Below are positions 56,207-64,000 of a stretch of 64,000 bases of DNA, piece by piece. Both the position numbers and the translations under genes were made by a program. Position 1 is the stretch's first letter. Each line of letters begins with the position of its first letter. The notes under the pieces were generated by a model, which ran no database searches, was not told where the DNA came from, and saw only the letters and a program-made list of their open reading frames with translations. This DNA is from Cytophagaceae bacterium ABcell3 (GTDB lineage Bacteria; Bacteroidota; Bacteroidia; Cytophagales; Cytophagaceae): contig CP133159.1 in the NCBI GenBank assembly GCA_030913385.1, positions 2,068,584 to 2,132,583 on the forward strand, in the 5' to 3' direction.

Positions 56207-57252
56207 CCTGACGATGAGATTGCATCGTTGACTTATTAAATAACCGCATCATCAATATATCTTTAATAAACTTAATGAGCTAAAGTCACCTAAAGCTCAA
56301 TCTCCACTTTTTCTTACCTTTTTTGCTTGTCCAAAAAAGGTAACCAAAAAAAGACACTATGGCTGAAAGGCATATTGCCACGCACTAAACGCACAGTCCC
56401 TCCCTGCCAGAAAAATGCCTTAACTGACGATTCATTGTCAAAGGCAGTGTTGTATGGCGGCATTTTTAAAAATCCGGCACCCCACAAGCCGCAATATGCC
56501 CACACCAGCCATAGAGTCCCCGCCCGCCCTTAGTAGCTACCGGACTGCTGATTATGGAGTTATTCTTTTAGTCTACTTTTCGGCTTTTACCAGATTGGAG
56601 GTTACCGCTGGCTTTGGATCTAAATTTTTAGGATGGTGTTTTAAACTCTAAAATAAACACTATAGCTGTCTCCCCGCACCTGTTGCGGGGTCTGTTTGGG
56701 GTAAAGCAGGAATGTGAATTGCCAAATATTAGGCAGGTGCCAGTAAGCAGTGTAGGTTGATTGTTAGGGTGTCAAATACCAGACCTAACGACTAGATTGC
56801 TTCGTCGTTCCTCCTCGCAATGACGTTGGGGTAATTTGGTGATTGTGGGGGTGTTATTATCTTATAGGTTGTAATAACATCTATCCCTTAATCCTGTCTA
56901 TCCTTTCATCCTGCGAATCCCGGTTCAGACAGTTTAGTGCCAGTGTCTAACAGATTCCTCCTGCGTCGGAATGACAGGTTATATATCATTGCATCATCAT
57001 ATCATCCTTAAGTTTCCTATGAAAAAATGCCGCGGCAATCTGTTGGTGGTAAGCTGTGTTGGTTGATATGTTTGTGGGGGAATAATACCAAACCTGACGA
57101 TGAGATTGCTTCGTCGTGCCTCCTCACAATGACGTGGAGGGGTGAGTTGTAATAGAGGGTGTTATTATCTGGTTGATTGTAGAAACATCTTTCCTTTAAT
57201 CCTGTATATCCTTTCATCCTGCGAATCCCGGTTCAGACAGTATAATACTAGA
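56207..57252 (+). repeat. Tandem long-repeat unit 1 (1046 bases)
   Basis: Unit boundaries are set arbitrarily at cctgacgatgagattgcatc. Each unit contains a nearly invariant block (here about 56297-56535) that opens with a hairpin of taccttttttg and caaaaaaggta, then a more variable block of about 170 bases, a ccccgca/tgcgggg hairpin, and two related modules of about 150 bases, each with a REP-like site and tcctttcatcctgcgaatcc. Overlapping short ORFs on both strands of the first block are probably not genes. Confidence 0.9.
56795..56825 (+). repeat. REP-like site of the array (representative)
   Basis: gattgcttcgtcgttcctcc followed by tcgcaatgacg; the outer gattgc and gcaat are complementary. 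The same 31 bases occur at 57981, 59025, 62715 and 63781, and split by the IS element at 60068. A variant with gtgcctcctcacaatgacg occurs in the second module of each unit, for example at 57104. Confidence 0.85.
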
Positions 57253-58438
57253 CCTGACGATGAGATTGCATCGTTGACTTATTAAATAACCGCATCATCA
57301 ATATATCTTTAATAAACTTAATGAGCTAAAGTCACCTAAAGCTCAATCTCCACTTTTTCTTACCTTTTTTGCTTGTCCAAAAAAGGTAACCAAAAAAAGA
57401 CACTATGGCTGAAAGGCATATTGCCACGCACTAAACGCACAGTCCCTCCCTGCCAGAAAAATGCCTTAACTGACGATTCATTGTCAAAGGCAGTGTTGTA
57501 TGGCGGCATTTTTAAAAATCCGGCACCCCACAAGCCGCAATATGCCCACACCAGCCATAGAGTCCCCGCCCGCCCTTAGTAGCTACCGGACTGCTGATTA
57601 TGGAGTTATTCTTTTAGTCTACTTTTTGGATCTTACCAGATTGGAGGTTACCGCTGGCTTTGGGTGTTAGTTTTTTGGGATGGTGTTTTAAACGCTAAAA
57701 GCAAACACTAGCTGCCTCCCCGCACCTGTTGCGGGGGCTGTTGGGGTAAAGCAGGAATGTGAATTGCCAAATATTAGGCAGGTGCCAGCGTCTAACCTTA
57801 AGGTTTTAATTAGCAGATAAGCAAAAATTAACCGTCATTGCGAGGCACAAGGTAATGGTTGATAAAGATCTATGGATTGAAGTTATAAGCCATTAGTTTT
57901 CTTATGAAAAAATGCCGCGGCAATCTGTTTGGGTAAGCTGTGTTGGTTGATTGTTAGGGTGTTAATGTTAAACCTGACGAGATTGCTTCGTCGTTCCTCC
58001 TCGCAATGACGTTGGGGTAATTTGGTGATTGTGGGGGTGTTATTATCTTATAGGTTGTAATAACATCTATCCCTTAATCCTGTCTATCCTTTCATCCTGC
58101 GAATCCCGGTTCAGACAGTTTAGTGCCAGTGCCTAACAGATTCCTCCTGCGTCGGAATGACAGGTTATATATCATTGCATCATCATATCATCCTTAAGTT
58201 TCCTATGAAAAAATGCCGCGGCAATCTGTTGGTGGTAAGCTGTGTTGGTTGATATGTTTGTGGGGGAATAATACCAAACCTGACGATGAGATTGCTTCGT
58301 CGTGCCTCCTCACAATGACGTGGAGGGGTGAGTTGTAATAGAGGGTGTTATTATCTGGTTGATTGTAGAAACATCTTTCCTTTAATCCTGTATATCCTTT
58401 CATCCTGCGAATCCCGGTTCAGACAGTATAATACTAGA
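57253..58438 (+). repeat. Tandem long-repeat unit 2 (1186 bases)
   Basis: Follows the plan of unit 1 but differs in a segment of about 170 bases (about 57789-57975), where the sequence ttaattagcagataagcaaa appears; similar sequence is found at the very end of the window (near 63985). The rest is almost identical to the other units. Confidence 0.9.
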
Positions 58439-59482
58439 CCTGACGATGAGATTGCATCGTTGACTTATTAAATAACCGCATCATCAATATATCTTTAATA
58501 AACTTAATGAGCTAAAGTCACCTAAAGCTCAATCTCCACTTTTTCTTACCTTTTTTGCTTGTCCAAAAAAGGTAACCAAAAAAAGACACTATGGCTGAAA
58601 GGCATATTGCCACGCACTAAACGCACAGTCCCTCCCTGCCAGAAAAATGCCTTAACTGACGATTCATTGTCAAAGGCAGTGTTGTATGGCGGCATTTTTA
58701 AAAATCCGGCAGCCCACAAGCCGCAATATGCCCACACCAGCCATAGAGTCCCCGCCCGCCCTTAGTAGCTACCGGGCTGCTGGTTATGGAATTATTCTTT
58801 TCCTCTACTTTTCGGCTCTTACCAGTTTGGAGATTATCGCTGGCTTTGGATCTAAATTTTTAGGATGGTGTTTTAAACTCTAAAATAAACACTATAGCTG
58901 TCTCCCCGCACCTGTTGCGGGGTCTGTTTGGGGTATGGTAGGATGTAACTTACCAAATATTATACGGTGCCAGTAAGCAGTGTAGGTTGATTGTTAGGGT
59001 GTCAAATACCAGACCTAACGACTAGATTGCTTCGTCGTTCCTCCTCGCAATGACGTTGGGGTAATTTGGTGATTGTGGGGGTGTTATTATCTTATAGGTT
59101 GTAATAACATCTATCCCTTAATCCTGTCTATCCTTTCATCCTGCGAATCCCGGTTCAGACAGTTTAGTGCCAGTGCCTAACAGATTCCTCCTGCGTCGGA
59201 ATGACAGGTTATATATCATTGCATCATCATATCATCCTTAAGTTTCCTATGAAAAAATGCCGCGGCAATCTGTTGGTGGTAAGCTGTGTTGGTTGATATG
59301 TTTGTGGGGGAATAATACCAAACCTGACGATGAGATTGCTTCGTCGTGCCTCCTCACAATGACGTGGAGGGGTGAGTTGTAATAGAGGGTGTTATTATCT
59401 GGTTGATTGTAGAAACATCTTTCCTTTAATCCTGTATATCCTTTCATCCTGCGAATCCCGGTTCAGACAGTATAATACTAGA
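58439..59482 (+). repeat. Tandem long-repeat unit 3 (1044 bases)
   Basis: Same plan as unit 1. From this unit onward the invariant block carries ccggcagccc in place of ccggcacccc, which groups units 3-6 apart from 1-2. Confidence 0.9.
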
Positions 59483-60104
59483 CCTGACGATGAGATTGCA
59501 TCGTTGACTTATTAAATAACCGCATCATCAATATATCTTTAATAAACTTAATGAGCTAAAGTCACCTAAAGCTCAATCTCCACTTTTTCTTACCTTTTTT
59601 GCTTGTCCAAAAAAGGTAACCAAAAAAAGACACTATGGCTGAAAGGCATATTGCCACGCACTAAACGCACAGTCCCTCCCTGCCAGAAAAATGCCTTAAC
59701 TGACGATTCATTGTCAAAGGCAGTGTTGTATGGCGGCATTTTTAAAAATCCGGCAGCCCACAAGCCGCAATATGCCCACACCAGCCATAGAGTCCCCGCC
59801 CGCCCTTAGTAGCTACCGGGCTGCTGGTTAAGGAGTTAATCTTTTTGTCTACTTTTCGGCTCTTACCAGATTGGAGGTTATAGCTGGCTTTGGGTGTAGT
59901 TTTTTAGGATGGTGTTTTAACGCTAAAAGCAAACACTATAGCTGTACCCCCGCACCTGTTGCGGGGTCTGTTTGGGTATGGTAGGATGTAACTTACCAAA
60001 TATTATACGGTGCCAGTAAGCAGTGTAGGTTGATTGTTAGGGTGTCAAATACCAGACCTAACGACTAGATTGCTTCGTCGTTCCTCCTACCGATGACGTA
60101 TCTT

Positions 60105-61427
60105 TCAAACTTCCTCACAAACAGTAAGTTGGTATCCTAGGTTCTTTGCCGTTTTCATCAACCACTTTTCTCGCTGAATTTTCATTAGTTCTTCATATTT
60201 CTTTATTCCCCTTTCTGTATAGTCAAGCCCTTTAACCATTAACCGCCAATATAGAACAGCAAGTTTTCTAGCTGTTGCTTTCACAGCTACGCCAGGGCCT
60301 CGTTTGGCTTTTATTCTTCTGCCAAATGCGCCTAGTGCAATTTTTTTGCTCTCAATCAAACTTTGTGCAATCTGCCTGAAAATTTGCCCTGCTTTTGGCC
60401 TAAATTTCTTTTTTGCATTTTTTTTCATTTTCCCGGAATCATTCTGTCCGGGGGACAACCCTAGCCAAGATGTAAACTGTTTTTCCGAAGGCCACTTTTC
60501 TAGATCATACCCTACTTCAGCATAGAGTTGTAGCCATGTATAGTCCGTTATGCCAGGTAGGTCTGTAGCGTCTCTACCTGTAAATATTTTAATTAAATGG
60601 CCTCCCAGGTTATCTACCTGAGGTTTGTTGTGCCTGATCGGCTTACGGCCTTTTACTGACTCTATTTCGTCTTTGGCGTCTTTGTCCTGGTGGTACCTGT
60701 TACTTCTTTCCATCGCTTGCTGTATTTTTTTATCGCATTGGGAGATTTGCCCTTGGTAAAAAAGATACGCTTCGTAAGCTTGCTGTAAAGCAAATAGCCC
60801 AGCTTCTGTATAATGTCCCTCTAAAGCCTTCAATACCAAGTACCCTTTTTTTTCCTTGATACTTTTATGGCAAAGGCTTAATAGTTTGTGCTTGTCCCTT
60901 TCTCCTTCTATGATTGCTTCTATGACTCTCAGGCCACTCGCTCCCTGTATTTGGTTTATAACCTCTTTGAGGCGGATATTCATTTCGGTTAAAGCTTTTT
61001 GCATATGGTTGATGTGCATCGATGCTGTTCTGATATGGTCCTCCCGCAACCTCTGATATCTCCTGATTTCTTTAACTTGCTCATCAGGCACAAAACACCG
61101 GTTCAACAGTCCGTAACTATGCAACTGCTGTATCCACTGACAGTCTTTAACATCTGTTTTTCGGCCGGGAACCTGTCTGGTCTGTCTTCCATCCACCAAC
61201 CATACATCTAAACCGGCCTTTTCTAGTATCTCATATAAGATAACCCAGTAAACACCGGTAGCTTCCATCGCTACCGATTCGACGCCCTTTGACACCAGGT
61301 AATCACAGGCCAAACGAAATTCTTCTGTAAATGTACCAAAGGAGCGCACTTGCTCTCCTCCAACTGAGACAAAGATCTTCTTTGCCCCAATGTCTACTCC
61401 AGCAGCATTAGCTCTTAATTTTTCCAT
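60105..61427 (-). CDS. IS110-family transposase/recombinase
   Basis: 440 residues. The RuvC-like N-terminal domain shows the DEDD set: Asp12 (GVDIGAK), Glu55 (AMEATG), Asp92 and Asp95 (TDVKDC). A coiled coil follows (about 120-260), then the transposase_20 domain (LPGITDY, WLGLSPG) with Ser331 in NDSGK, the place of the nucleophilic serine of IS621. Recombinases of this kind are guided by a bridge RNA from the element's non-coding end. The frame is intact, so the element may be active. Confidence 0.93.
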   Translation of the reverse strand: MEKLRANAAGVDIGAKKIFVSVGGEQVRSFGTFTEEFRLACDYLVSKGVESVAMEATGVYWVILYEILEKAGLDVWLVDGRQTRQVPGRKTDVKDCQWIQQLHSYGLLNRCFVPDEQVKEIRRYQRLREDHIRTASMHINHMQKALTEMNIRLKEVINQIQGASGLRVIEAIIEGERDKHKLLSLCHKSIKEKKGYLVLKALEGHYTEAGLFALQQAYEAYLFYQGQISQCDKKIQQAMERSNRYHQDKDAKDEIESVKGRKPIRHNKPQVDNLGGHLIKIFTGRDATDLPGITDYTWLQLYAEVGYDLEKWPSEKQFTSWLGLSPGQNDSGKMKKNAKKKFRPKAGQIFRQIAQSLIESKKIALGAFGRRIKAKRGPGVAVKATARKLAVLYWRLMVKGLDYTERGIKKYEELMKIQREKWLMKTAKNLGYQLTVCEEV

Positions 61428-61669
61428 CGATCATATTAACTTTTAGTGATAAAATCCTGTACAGGAAGGAGATATCGCATGAAAGACTACCGAACGGACA
61501 TTTCCAATTAAAAGAAAGTACCAAAATTTGTGACTCCATCCTTCCCAACCATACTCGCAAGCAGGCAATAGCACTAAATGTAACGCGGCCATGGGTACAG
61601 GTTCTACAAAAATAAAAATAATACACGTCATCTTATTTTGTGTGTTTGGCAGAGCCAAAAATTAGGTCT
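61428..61669 (-). ncRNA. Candidate bridge RNA region of the IS110 element
   Basis: Upstream non-coding end, read on the minus strand. It starts with a tttggc-tct-gccaaa stem (61645-61659). TTGCGAG (61560 down to 61554) equals the last five bases of the left target plus core (target ATTGCG-AG). TCGGTAG (61493 down to 61487) equals the last five bases of the left donor plus core (donor ATCGGT-AG). Order target loop, then donor loop, is as in IS621. Right-hand guides could not be identified. A tcctgt/acagga palindrome (61455-61466) follows before the start codon. Confidence 0.6.
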
Positions 61670-62106
61670 CGCAATGACGTTGGGGTAATTTGGTGATTGT
61701 GGGGGTGTTATTATCTTATAGGTTGTAATAACATCTATCCCTTAATCCTGTCTATCCTTTCATCCTGCGAATCCCGGTTCAGACAGTTTAGTGCCAGTGT
61801 CTAACAGATTCCTCCTGCGTCGGAATGACAGGTTATATATCATTGCATCATCATATCATCCTTAAGTTTCCTATGAAAAAATGCCGCGGCAATCTGTTGG
61901 TGGTAAGCTGTGTTGGTTGATATGTTTGTGGGGGAATAATACCAAACCTGACGATGAGATTGCTTCGTCGTGCCTCCTCACAATGACGTGGAGGGGTGAG
62001 TTGTAATAGAGGGTGTTATTATCTGGTTGATTGTAGAAACATCTTTCCTTTAATCCTGTATATCCTTTCATCCTGCGAATCCCGGTTCAGACAGTATAAT
62101 ACTAGA

Positions 62107-63172
62107 CCTGACGATGAGATTGCATCGTTGACTTATTAAATAACCGCATCATCAATATATCTTTAATAAACTTAATGAGCTAAAGTCACCTAAAGCTCAA
62201 TCTCCACTTTTTCTTACCTTTTTTGCTTGTCCAAAAAAGGTAACCAAAAAAAGACACTATGGCTGAAAGGCATATTGCCACGCACTAAACGCACAGTCCC
62301 TCCCTGCCAGAAAAATGCCTTAACTGACGATTCATTGTCAAAGGCAGTGTTGTATGGCGGCATTTTTAAAAATCCGGCAGCCCACAAGCCGCAATATGCC
62401 CACACCAGCCATAGAGTCCCCGCCCGCCCTTAGTAGCTACCGGACTGCTGATTATTGAGTTGTTCTTTTTGTCTACTTTTCGGCTCTTACCAGTTTGGAG
62501 GTTATCGCTGTCTTTAGTTGTTAGTTTTTGAGCTCAATTAATAAAACTTTAGTAAGGTAGTTTTAAGCTCTAAAAATAAACACTATAGCTGTCTCCCCGC
62601 ACCTGTTGCGGGGTCTGTTTGGGTATGGTAGGATGTAACTTGCCAAATATTATACGGTGCCAGTAAGCAGTGTAGGTTGATTGTTAGGGTGTCAAATACC
62701 AGACCTAACGACTAGATTGCTTCGTCGTTCCTCCTCGCAATGACGTTGGGGTAATTTGGTGATTGTGGGGGTGTTATTATCTTATAGGTTGTAATAACAT
62801 CTATCCCTTAATCCTGTCTATCCTTTCATCCTGCGAATCCCGGTTCAGACAGTTTAGTGCCAGTGCCTAACAGATTCCTCCTGCGTCGGAATGACAGGTT
62901 ATATATCATTGCATCATCATATCATCCTTAAGTTTCCTATGAAAAAATGCCGCGGCAATCTGTTGGTGGTAAGCTGTGTTGGTTGATATGTTTGTGGGGG
63001 AATAATACCAAACCTGACGATGAGATTGCTTCGTCGTGCCTCCTCACAATGACGTGGAGGGGTGAGTTGTAATAGAGGGTGTTATTATCTGGTTGATTGT
63101 AGAAACATCTTTCCTTTAATCCTGTATATCCTTTCATCCTGCGAATCCCGGTTCAGACAGTATAATACTAGA
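62107..63172 (+). repeat. Tandem long-repeat unit 5 (1066 bases)
   Basis: Same plan; its variable block contains an added stretch (ttgagctcaattaataaaac, near 62527) shared only with unit 6. Confidence 0.9.
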
Positions 63173-64000
63173 CCTGACGATGAGATTGCATCGTTGACTT
63201 ATTAAATAACCGCATCATCAATATATCTTTAATAAACTTAATGAGCTAAAGTCACCTAAAGCTCAATCTCCACTTTTTCTTACCTTTTTTGCTTGTCCAA
63301 AAAAGGTAACCAAAAAAAGACACTATGGCTGAAAGGCATATTGCCACGCACTAAACGCACAGTCCCTCCCTGCCAGAAAAATGCCTTAACTGACGATTCA
63401 TTGTCAAAGGCAGTGTTGTATGGCGGCATTTTTAAAAATCCGGCAGCCCACAAGCCACAATATGCCCACACCAGCCATAGAGTCCCCGCCCGCCCTTAGT
63501 AGCTATCGGACTGCTGATTATGGAATTATTCTTTTTGTCTACTTTTCGGCTCTTACCAGTTTGGAGGTTATCGCTGTCTTTAGTTGTTAGTTTTTGAGCT
63601 CAATTAATAAAACTTTAGTAAGGTAGTTTTAAGCTCTAAAAATAAACACTATAGCTGTCTCCCCGCACCTGTTGCGGGGTCTGTTTGGGTATGGTAGGAT
63701 GTAACTTGCCAAATATTATACGGTGCCAGTAAGCAGTGTAGGTTGATTGTTAGGGTGTCAAATACCAGACCTAACGACTAGATTGCTTCGTCGTTCCTCC
63801 TCGCAATGACGTTGGGGTAATTTGGTGATTGTGGGGGTGTTATTATCTTATAGGTTGTAATAACATCTATCCCTTAATCCTGTCTATCCTTTCATCCTGC
63901 GAATCCCGGTTCAGACAGTTTAGTGCCAGTGTCTGACATATCCCTCGTGCCTCGGAATGACAGGTTATTATGAAGGTTGTAATTAGCAGATAACCAAAAA
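63173..64000 (+). repeat. Tandem long-repeat unit 6, incomplete at window end
   Basis: Follows unit 5 closely up to about 63930, then departs (gtctgacatatccctcgtgc) and ends in sequence resembling the odd segment of unit 2. The array may end here or continue in another form beyond the window. Confidence 0.85.

What the first reader, a model, noticed from the sequence alone, without database searches (positions are those of the whole stretch)
61428..61669. Bridge RNA of a new IS110 element, with guides that match its target and donor
Seen: on the transposase strand the target is ..CATTGCG-AG-GAGG.. and the donor junction (RE-core-LE of the excised circle) is ..CATCGGT-AG-ACCT... The upstream non-coding end contains TTGCGAG and, 67 bases further on, TCGGTAG. 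Each equals five flank bases plus the AG core of target and donor respectively, and the mismatch starts at the same position in both. Known: in IS621, the left guides of the target and donor loops carry the top-strand sequence up to and including the core, target loop first. Inferred: this is the bridge RNA and the element was inserted by it. The right-hand guides are not evident, which weakens the case.
Basis: partly seen in the sequence, partly recalled or inferred. Interest (0 to 1): 0.82.

Follow-up and report, generated by a model that had tools for sequence, protein, structure and literature searches.

The report
Rearranged bridge RNA of IS110 element
A jumping gene in this genome carries a small guide RNA that matches both the place it jumps to and its own end; comparison with about 90 relatives confirms this and shows the RNA is laid out differently from the known example, with an extra guide that matches a folded stretch of the element's own DNA.

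Summary
The element (window 61667-60089, minus strand, AG core) encodes an IS110 transposase. Both genomic copies sit in the same REP-like site, CGTCATTGCG-AG-GAGGAACGACG; 43 matching sites are intact. Across 94 related elements, the heptamer at the TTGCGAG position matches each element's own left flank (perfect 7/7 in 52; shuffles 3.6). The heptamer at the TCGGTAG position matches each element's own right end (71/90; shuffles 16). The fold (P1, target loop, donor loop, P4) is supported by covariation, and a covariance model finds it in relatives from other phyla. New here: (1) within each loop the order is reversed relative to IS621. (2) No top-strand right donor guide was found. Instead a ~7-nt segment (61532-61526) is identical to left-end DNA about 25-35 bp inside the element (z 16.6), next to a covarying DNA hairpin enclosed by covarying subterminal inverted repeats. 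This suggests donor recognition through two bottom-strand guides on a folded end. That step is inferred. No transcript or activity was measured, and six published IS110/IS1111 structures could not be compared.

The parts
60089..61667 (-). IS110 element without its flanking AG cores (left core 61669-61668, right core 60088-60087)
   Evidence: Ends fixed by two genomic copies and by intact copies of the target repeat
60105..61427 (-). IS110 transposase, 440 aa; IS110-type motifs read by eye (GVDIG, EATG, KTDVKD, and G--P----SG as GLSPGQNDSG)
   Evidence: PF01548 E 2e-19, PF02371 E 8e-11; NF033542 E 1.7e-64; weak match to the IS621 structure 8wt6; motifs read from the translation
61668..61674 (-). 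left target TTGCG plus core AG
60079..60087 (-). core base 2 plus right target, G-GAGGAACG
60087..60093 (-). left donor TCGGT plus core AG (right end of the element)
61645..61659 (.). subterminal left-end DNA hairpin TTTGGC-TCT-GCCAAA
   Evidence: Perfect stems conserved while the sequence changes in 64 relatives: mean 4.9 bp vs 3.4 shuffled, z 13.3; folds in the junction strand
61636..61642 (-). S, left-end DNA segment CACAAAA matched by the donor loop segment S'
61625..61632 (-). left subterminal inverted repeat GATGACGT
   Evidence: 8-bp complement of 60099-60092 in the circle junction; extension covaries, 2.40 of 4 vs 1.14+-0.12 shuffled
60092..60099 (-). right subterminal inverted repeat ACGTCATC
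   Evidence: as above
61607..61614 (-). candidate -7 box TATTTTTG (Bacteroidota TAnnTTTG type) of the bridge RNA promoter
   Evidence: 6 of 29 close relatives have it at this place, 0.7 expected; consensus from own knowledge; inferred
61456..61601 (-). bridge RNA as bounded by the closing helix P1 (61601-61595 with 61462-61456); true ends not known
   Evidence: P1 covariation z 13.4; minimum-energy fold; covariance model match 61605-61441, 131 bits, a training sequence
61547..61590 (-). target-binding loop: outer stem 61590-61587/61550-61547, inner hairpin 61576-61562
   Evidence: stem 96% paired in 28 sequences; z 5.8
61577..61585 (-). right target guide CGTTACATT, 5' side of the target loop, pairs with the top strand of core base 2 to +8 (5 Watson-Crick and 2 G-U of 9)
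   Evidence: z 5.1, 0/5000; six controls at most 1.2
61554..61560 (-). left target guide TTGCGAG
61464..61545 (-). donor-binding loop: outer stem GGAAGGA 61545-61539 / TCCTTCC 61470-61464
   Evidence: z 12.1
61526..61532 (-). S' segment CACAAAT, 5' side of the donor loop, complementary to the bottom strand of S (6 of 7)
   Evidence: z 16.6 for S' vs S bottom strand; 1.6 for S' vs the right donor top strand
61496..61522 (-). P4 hairpin between S' and the left donor guide
   Evidence: 97.6% paired in 28 sequences, up to 6 pair types per pair; z 10.4
61487..61493 (-). left donor guide TCGGTAG
   Evidence: z 12.8

Best explanation
The region is the bridge RNA gene of an active-looking IS110 element. 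The RNA (about 61603-61450) folds into a closing helix with two internal loops. The first (target) loop carries a right target guide followed by a left target guide, which pair with the top strand right of the AG core and the bottom strand left of it. This directs the transposase to the REP-like repeat CGTCATTGCG-AG-GAGGAACG. Strand exchange at AG then inserts the circle. Shown by comparison: fold, left guides, right target guide, S'-S identity, hairpin, inverted repeats. Inferred: transcription, RNA-protein complex, circle, actual S' pairing, DNA folding, chemistry.
For: Left guides track own target and donor in ~90 elements. Helices covary: P1 z 13.4, donor-loop stem 12.1, P4 10.4, target-loop stem 5.8; 122 double-changed cells vs 53 shuffled, slid structures lower. 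The window RNA folds to this shape unaided, though not more stably than shuffles (z -0.9). A covariance model finds the RNA in relatives not used to build it, including Verrucomicrobia and Cyanobacteriota, and only at the two element copies in this genome. Right target guide: z 5.1, controls <=1.2; one element with several copies has RTG GACTATCGT and sites GCGTAGTC, GCGCAGTC, GCGAAGTC. S'-S bottom strand z 16.6; matched case by case in a subclade. Left-end hairpin z 13.3 and inverted-repeat covariation; the junction strand folds with both stems, z -3.35.
Against: No RNA-seq, circle or transposition data. The window's own S' match is only 6 of 7 and its right target guide has 2 mismatches and 2 wobbles of 9. 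In the single-sequence fold four bases of the left target guide pair inside the loop; this pairing is not in the consensus used. The right flank of one multi-copy Verrucomicrobial element is not conserved, so right-side guiding may be weak or absent in some lineages. S is upstream of the candidate promoter, so it could be regulatory.
Confidence: 0.85

Rival explanations
1. The bridge RNA and its left guides are real, but the S'-S match is an autoregulatory site: the RNA-transposase complex binds S just upstream of the bridge RNA promoter and represses it. S does not take part in donor recognition.
For: S lies about 25-40 bp upstream of the candidate -7 box TATTTTTG. The S'-S identity alone does not show what the pairing is for.
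Against: S' sits in the donor loop, in the place that a right guide occupies in the target loop. S is flanked by a hairpin and an inverted repeat that only closes in the circle junction. The candidate promoter box is present in only 6 of 29 close relatives while S is far more widespread.
Confidence: 0.2
2. [quoted passage not shown]
For: The family is the same and both guide heptamers behave as IS621 left guides (PMC11208160, PMC11208158).
Against: The region 3' of the left target guide shows no match to the right target (z 0.9 and 0.0), nor does the region after the left donor guide (1.2); the region 5' of the left target guide does (5.1). The helices put the left guides on the 3' side. The S'-S identity covaries in 64 elements.
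Confidence: 0.04
3. The two heptamer matches are coincidence or shared ancestry with the target repeat.
For: The target is a very common repeat, so a 7-mer match by chance is possible for one element.
Against: Guides and flanks change together across 94 elements, including targets unlike the repeat: TTTGGCAG (L040), ACGCAAG (L070), GTCACAG (L089), AGCATAG (L106).
Confidence: 0.01

Closest known systems
IS621 bridge RNA (IS110 group; PMC11208160, PMC11208158)
   Same: RNA encoded in the non-coding left end; target loop before donor loop; left guides equal to the top strand up to and including a 2-bp core; right target guide pairs with the top strand
   Different: Right guide 5' and left guide 3' within each loop; AG core instead of CT; 440-aa transposase (IS621 chain 328 aa); long covarying subterminal repeats with an inner hairpin; no top-strand right donor guide detected, S' present instead; both loops enclosed by one closing helix, no separate 5' stem-loop recognised
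seekRNA of IS1111 elements (PMC11187229)
   Same: Top-strand complement precedes bottom-strand match in the RNA; subterminal inverted repeats enclose the donor junction
   Different: RNA region upstream, not downstream, of the transposase gene; transposase matches the IS110 models; repeats shorter, with the left repeat displaced inward by the hairpin and S (about 35 bp from the core instead of 7 bp)
seekRNA of ISEc21 (IS110 family; PMC11187229)
   Same: Upstream non-coding region gives an RNA that matches the target
   Different: ISEc21 has the bottom-strand match first and top-strand match second; here the order is the reverse

Membership tests
IS110 family transposase | RuvC-like DEDD domain plus Transposase_20 domain with SG motif | tested here: met
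   PF01548, PF02371, NF033542 above cut-off; motifs read by eye in the translation
IS110 group (as opposed to IS1111) | long non-coding end upstream of the transposase gene, short right end | tested here: met
   240 nt upstream, 16 nt between stop codon and right core
IS110 group (as opposed to IS1111) | no long subterminal inverted repeats (2-3 bp only) | tested here: not met
   8-bp repeat in the window; extension covaries in 53 relatives
IS1111 group | NCR downstream of tnp; 11-13 bp sTIR with 7-bp left and 3-bp right extensions | tested here: not met
   NCR upstream; 8-bp repeat, left repeat about 35 bp from the core
bridge RNA (general) | guides covarying with target and donor, both strands | tested here: met
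   target: both strands; donor: bottom strand only
bridge RNA (general) | RNA expressed and bound by the transposase | not testable with these tools
   needs small-RNA sequencing and co-purification
IS621-type bridge RNA | left guide 5' of right guide in each loop | tested here: not met
   right target guide is 5' of the left target guide
IS621-type bridge RNA | right donor guide pairing with the top strand next to the core | tested here: inconclusive
   no signal from S' (z 1.6) and only background-level signals elsewhere in the donor loop; weak guides could be missed

The most novel reading that the evidence does not exclude
In this large IS110 clade the bridge RNA reads its own element through two guides on the same (bottom) strand, one at the right end and core and one about 30 bp inside the left end, across a DNA hairpin held by subterminal inverted repeats. 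The donor would then be recognised as a folded DNA shape mirrored by the donor loop, unlike the top/bottom-strand scheme of IS621.
Probability: 0.45. Interest if true: 0.75.

Novelty: new variant of a known kind. Interest (0 to 1): 0.58.

Why it matters
Bridge RNAs are of wide interest as programmable recombinases, and detailed rules come mainly from IS621. Here a separate, widespread clade appears to use reversed guide order and an additional donor guide tied to a DNA hairpin. If confirmed, it changes which bases must be programmed, gives a clue to how IS110 and IS1111 layouts are related, and raises the testable question of whether the donor end is read as folded DNA.

Tried and rejected
Rfam: no match in the window. 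Right target guide sought 3' of the left guide and after the left donor guide: no signal. Right donor guide on the top strand of the left end: no signal above background. Ungapped local test of the right target guide was weak (z at most 2.7); anchored and gapped tests resolved it. The inner target hairpin is nearly invariant, so covariation says little about it. Folding energy of the window RNA alone does not separate it from shuffles (z -0.9). P1 and the donor-loop stem score poorly on the MAFFT alignment because the 3' part is misaligned (55% and 52% of cells paired); the alignment-free test was used instead. Viral contigs held only distant or partial relatives; phage records only two Wolbachia phage WO hits at ~40% identity. 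The idea that the left-end hairpin and S are part of the mature RNA was set aside because the candidate promoter lies after them; this is not proven.

Full report
What is there. The minus strand of window 61669-60087 holds one IS110 element. The transposase (440 aa, 61427-60105) matches PF01548, PF02371 and NF033542 and weakly the IS621 structure. The genome holds two full copies, one in the window and one at 2191014-2192651. Both read ...CGTCATTGCGAG|ACCTAATT at the left and ...ACGTCATCGGTAG|GAGGA at the right, with different sequence beyond the repeat. The target is a REP-like repeat with 43 sites matching GTCATTGCGAGGAGGNACGACGAAG still intact, several in the ~1.05-kb repeat array that the window copy interrupts. 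The shared dinucleotide AG is the core; neighbouring bases differ between target and donor.

The observation. For the general test, 79 relatives were fetched from one genome scan, and more from whole genomes. Taking the heptamer at the corresponding place in each relative, 52 of 94 match their own left flank perfectly and 81 at six or more positions; shuffling guides among elements gives 3.6+-1.9 and 16.6+-3.3. Because the left boundary was chosen as the best match, the shuffled control used the same search. Targets differ widely, from GTCATTCCGAG and GTCACCCTGAG to TTTGGCAG, GTCACAG, ACGCAAG and AGCATAG, and the guides follow. Position by position the signal covers exactly -5 to +2. The donor heptamer matches the element's own right end at >=7 of 8 in 71 of 90 versus 16.2+-3.5.

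The fold. Four helices are supported by longest-complement tests against shuffled partners: closing helix P1 z 13.4, donor-loop stem z 12.1, P4 z 10.4, target-loop stem z 5.8. On an alignment of 28 close relatives, 122 cells change on both sides versus 53 in shuffles, and slid structures score lower. P4 is paired in 97.6% of cells with up to six pair types per pair. The window sequence alone folds to the same plan, although its energy is not unusual. A covariance model finds the RNA in relatives from Verrucomicrobia, Cyanobacteriota and others not used to build it, and in this genome only at the two element copies.

Reversed guide order. In this fold the left guides lie on the 3' side of their loops. 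[quoted passage not shown] In the ungapped anchored test the signal peaks on a single diagonal. For the window element it is 5 Watson-Crick and 2 G-U pairs of 9. In a multi-copy element (locus L121 and its copies) the guide GACTATCGT faces GCGTAGTC, GCGCAGTC and GCGAAGTC. In IS621 the left guide comes first (PMC11208158). The order here is the one reported for IS1111 seekRNAs, and the reverse of ISEc21 (PMC11187229), although the RNA lies upstream of the gene as in the IS110 group.

An unexpected donor-loop segment. The 5' side of the donor loop (S', P4-10 to P4-4; window 61532-61526 CACAAAT) is a same-sense copy of left-end DNA 25-35 bp inside the element (S; window 61642-61636 CACAAAA). The identity covaries: best-8-mer z 10.6, anchored z 9.4, gapped z 16.6, against 1.6 for pairing with the top strand next to the core. 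In a subclade S' and S change together, e.g. GGCAAAAAGA, GGCATAATGAG, CACAATGTG, CACATAGTAT. S is preceded by a DNA hairpin whose arms change while pairing is kept (mean perfect stem 4.9 bp vs 3.4 shuffled, z 13.3; a control stretch outside the element gives z 1.4) and followed by a subterminal inverted repeat that pairs with the right end across the circle junction and covaries beyond its GTCA/GTTCA core (2.40 of 4 vs 1.14+-0.12). The window junction strand folds with an 8-bp outer and a 6-bp inner stem, z -3.35.

How it probably works. The left donor guide and S' would both pair with the bottom donor strand, on either side of the hairpin. The donor strand then has the order inverted repeat - S - hairpin - right donor/core/left donor - inverted repeat, and the donor loop has stem - S' - P4 - left donor guide - stem: the same order, with the two single-stranded sides complementary. 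A folded donor end read by a matching RNA loop is the simplest reading, but it is inference. The main alternative for S' is autoregulation, because S is just upstream of a candidate Bacteroidota promoter box TATTTTTG at 61614-61607; that box is present at this place in only 6 of 29 close relatives (0.7 expected).

Novelty. Membership in the IS110 family and in the bridge RNA class is clear except for expression and binding, which cannot be tested here. The layout departs from IS621 in guide order, donor guide and end structure, so this is a new variant of a known kind. The six predicted structures in Extended Data Fig. 10 of PMC11208160 may already include something similar; the figure is not held, so priority is uncertain.

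Noticed in passing
L084-L088, L094: In one Verrucomicrobial genome two IS110 elements appear to target each other's right ends: one has guide TGGAGAG and right end TCATGGGAAG, the other guide TGGGAAG and right end TCATGGAGAG, and junctions of both kinds occur.
   Followed up: partly
L073, L149, L152: Elements whose target and donor guides are alike sit in tandem, one copy inserted at the right end of another.
   Followed up: no
L034, L036, L045, L051, L112, L113: The second core base differs between the two junctions (AG on the left; A followed by C, A or T on the right), suggesting that only the A is strict and that mismatched cores can be resolved either way.
   Followed up: no
L169, L171, L172: More distant plasmid-borne relatives (37-39% identity) sit directly after CCTAAAAAAC or TTAAAAAAC inside what looks like IS3-family coding sequence; L169 and L171 also show a left-end hairpin.
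   Followed up: no
window 56800-63900: Direct repeats of about 1.05 kb each carry a CATTGCGAGGAGG site; the element interrupts one unit.
   Followed up: no
own genome 2125383-2248557: Of 43 intact target repeats most are clustered within about 125 kb and in one orientation, with a smaller group near 4.04-4.07 Mb mostly in the other orientation.
   Followed up: no
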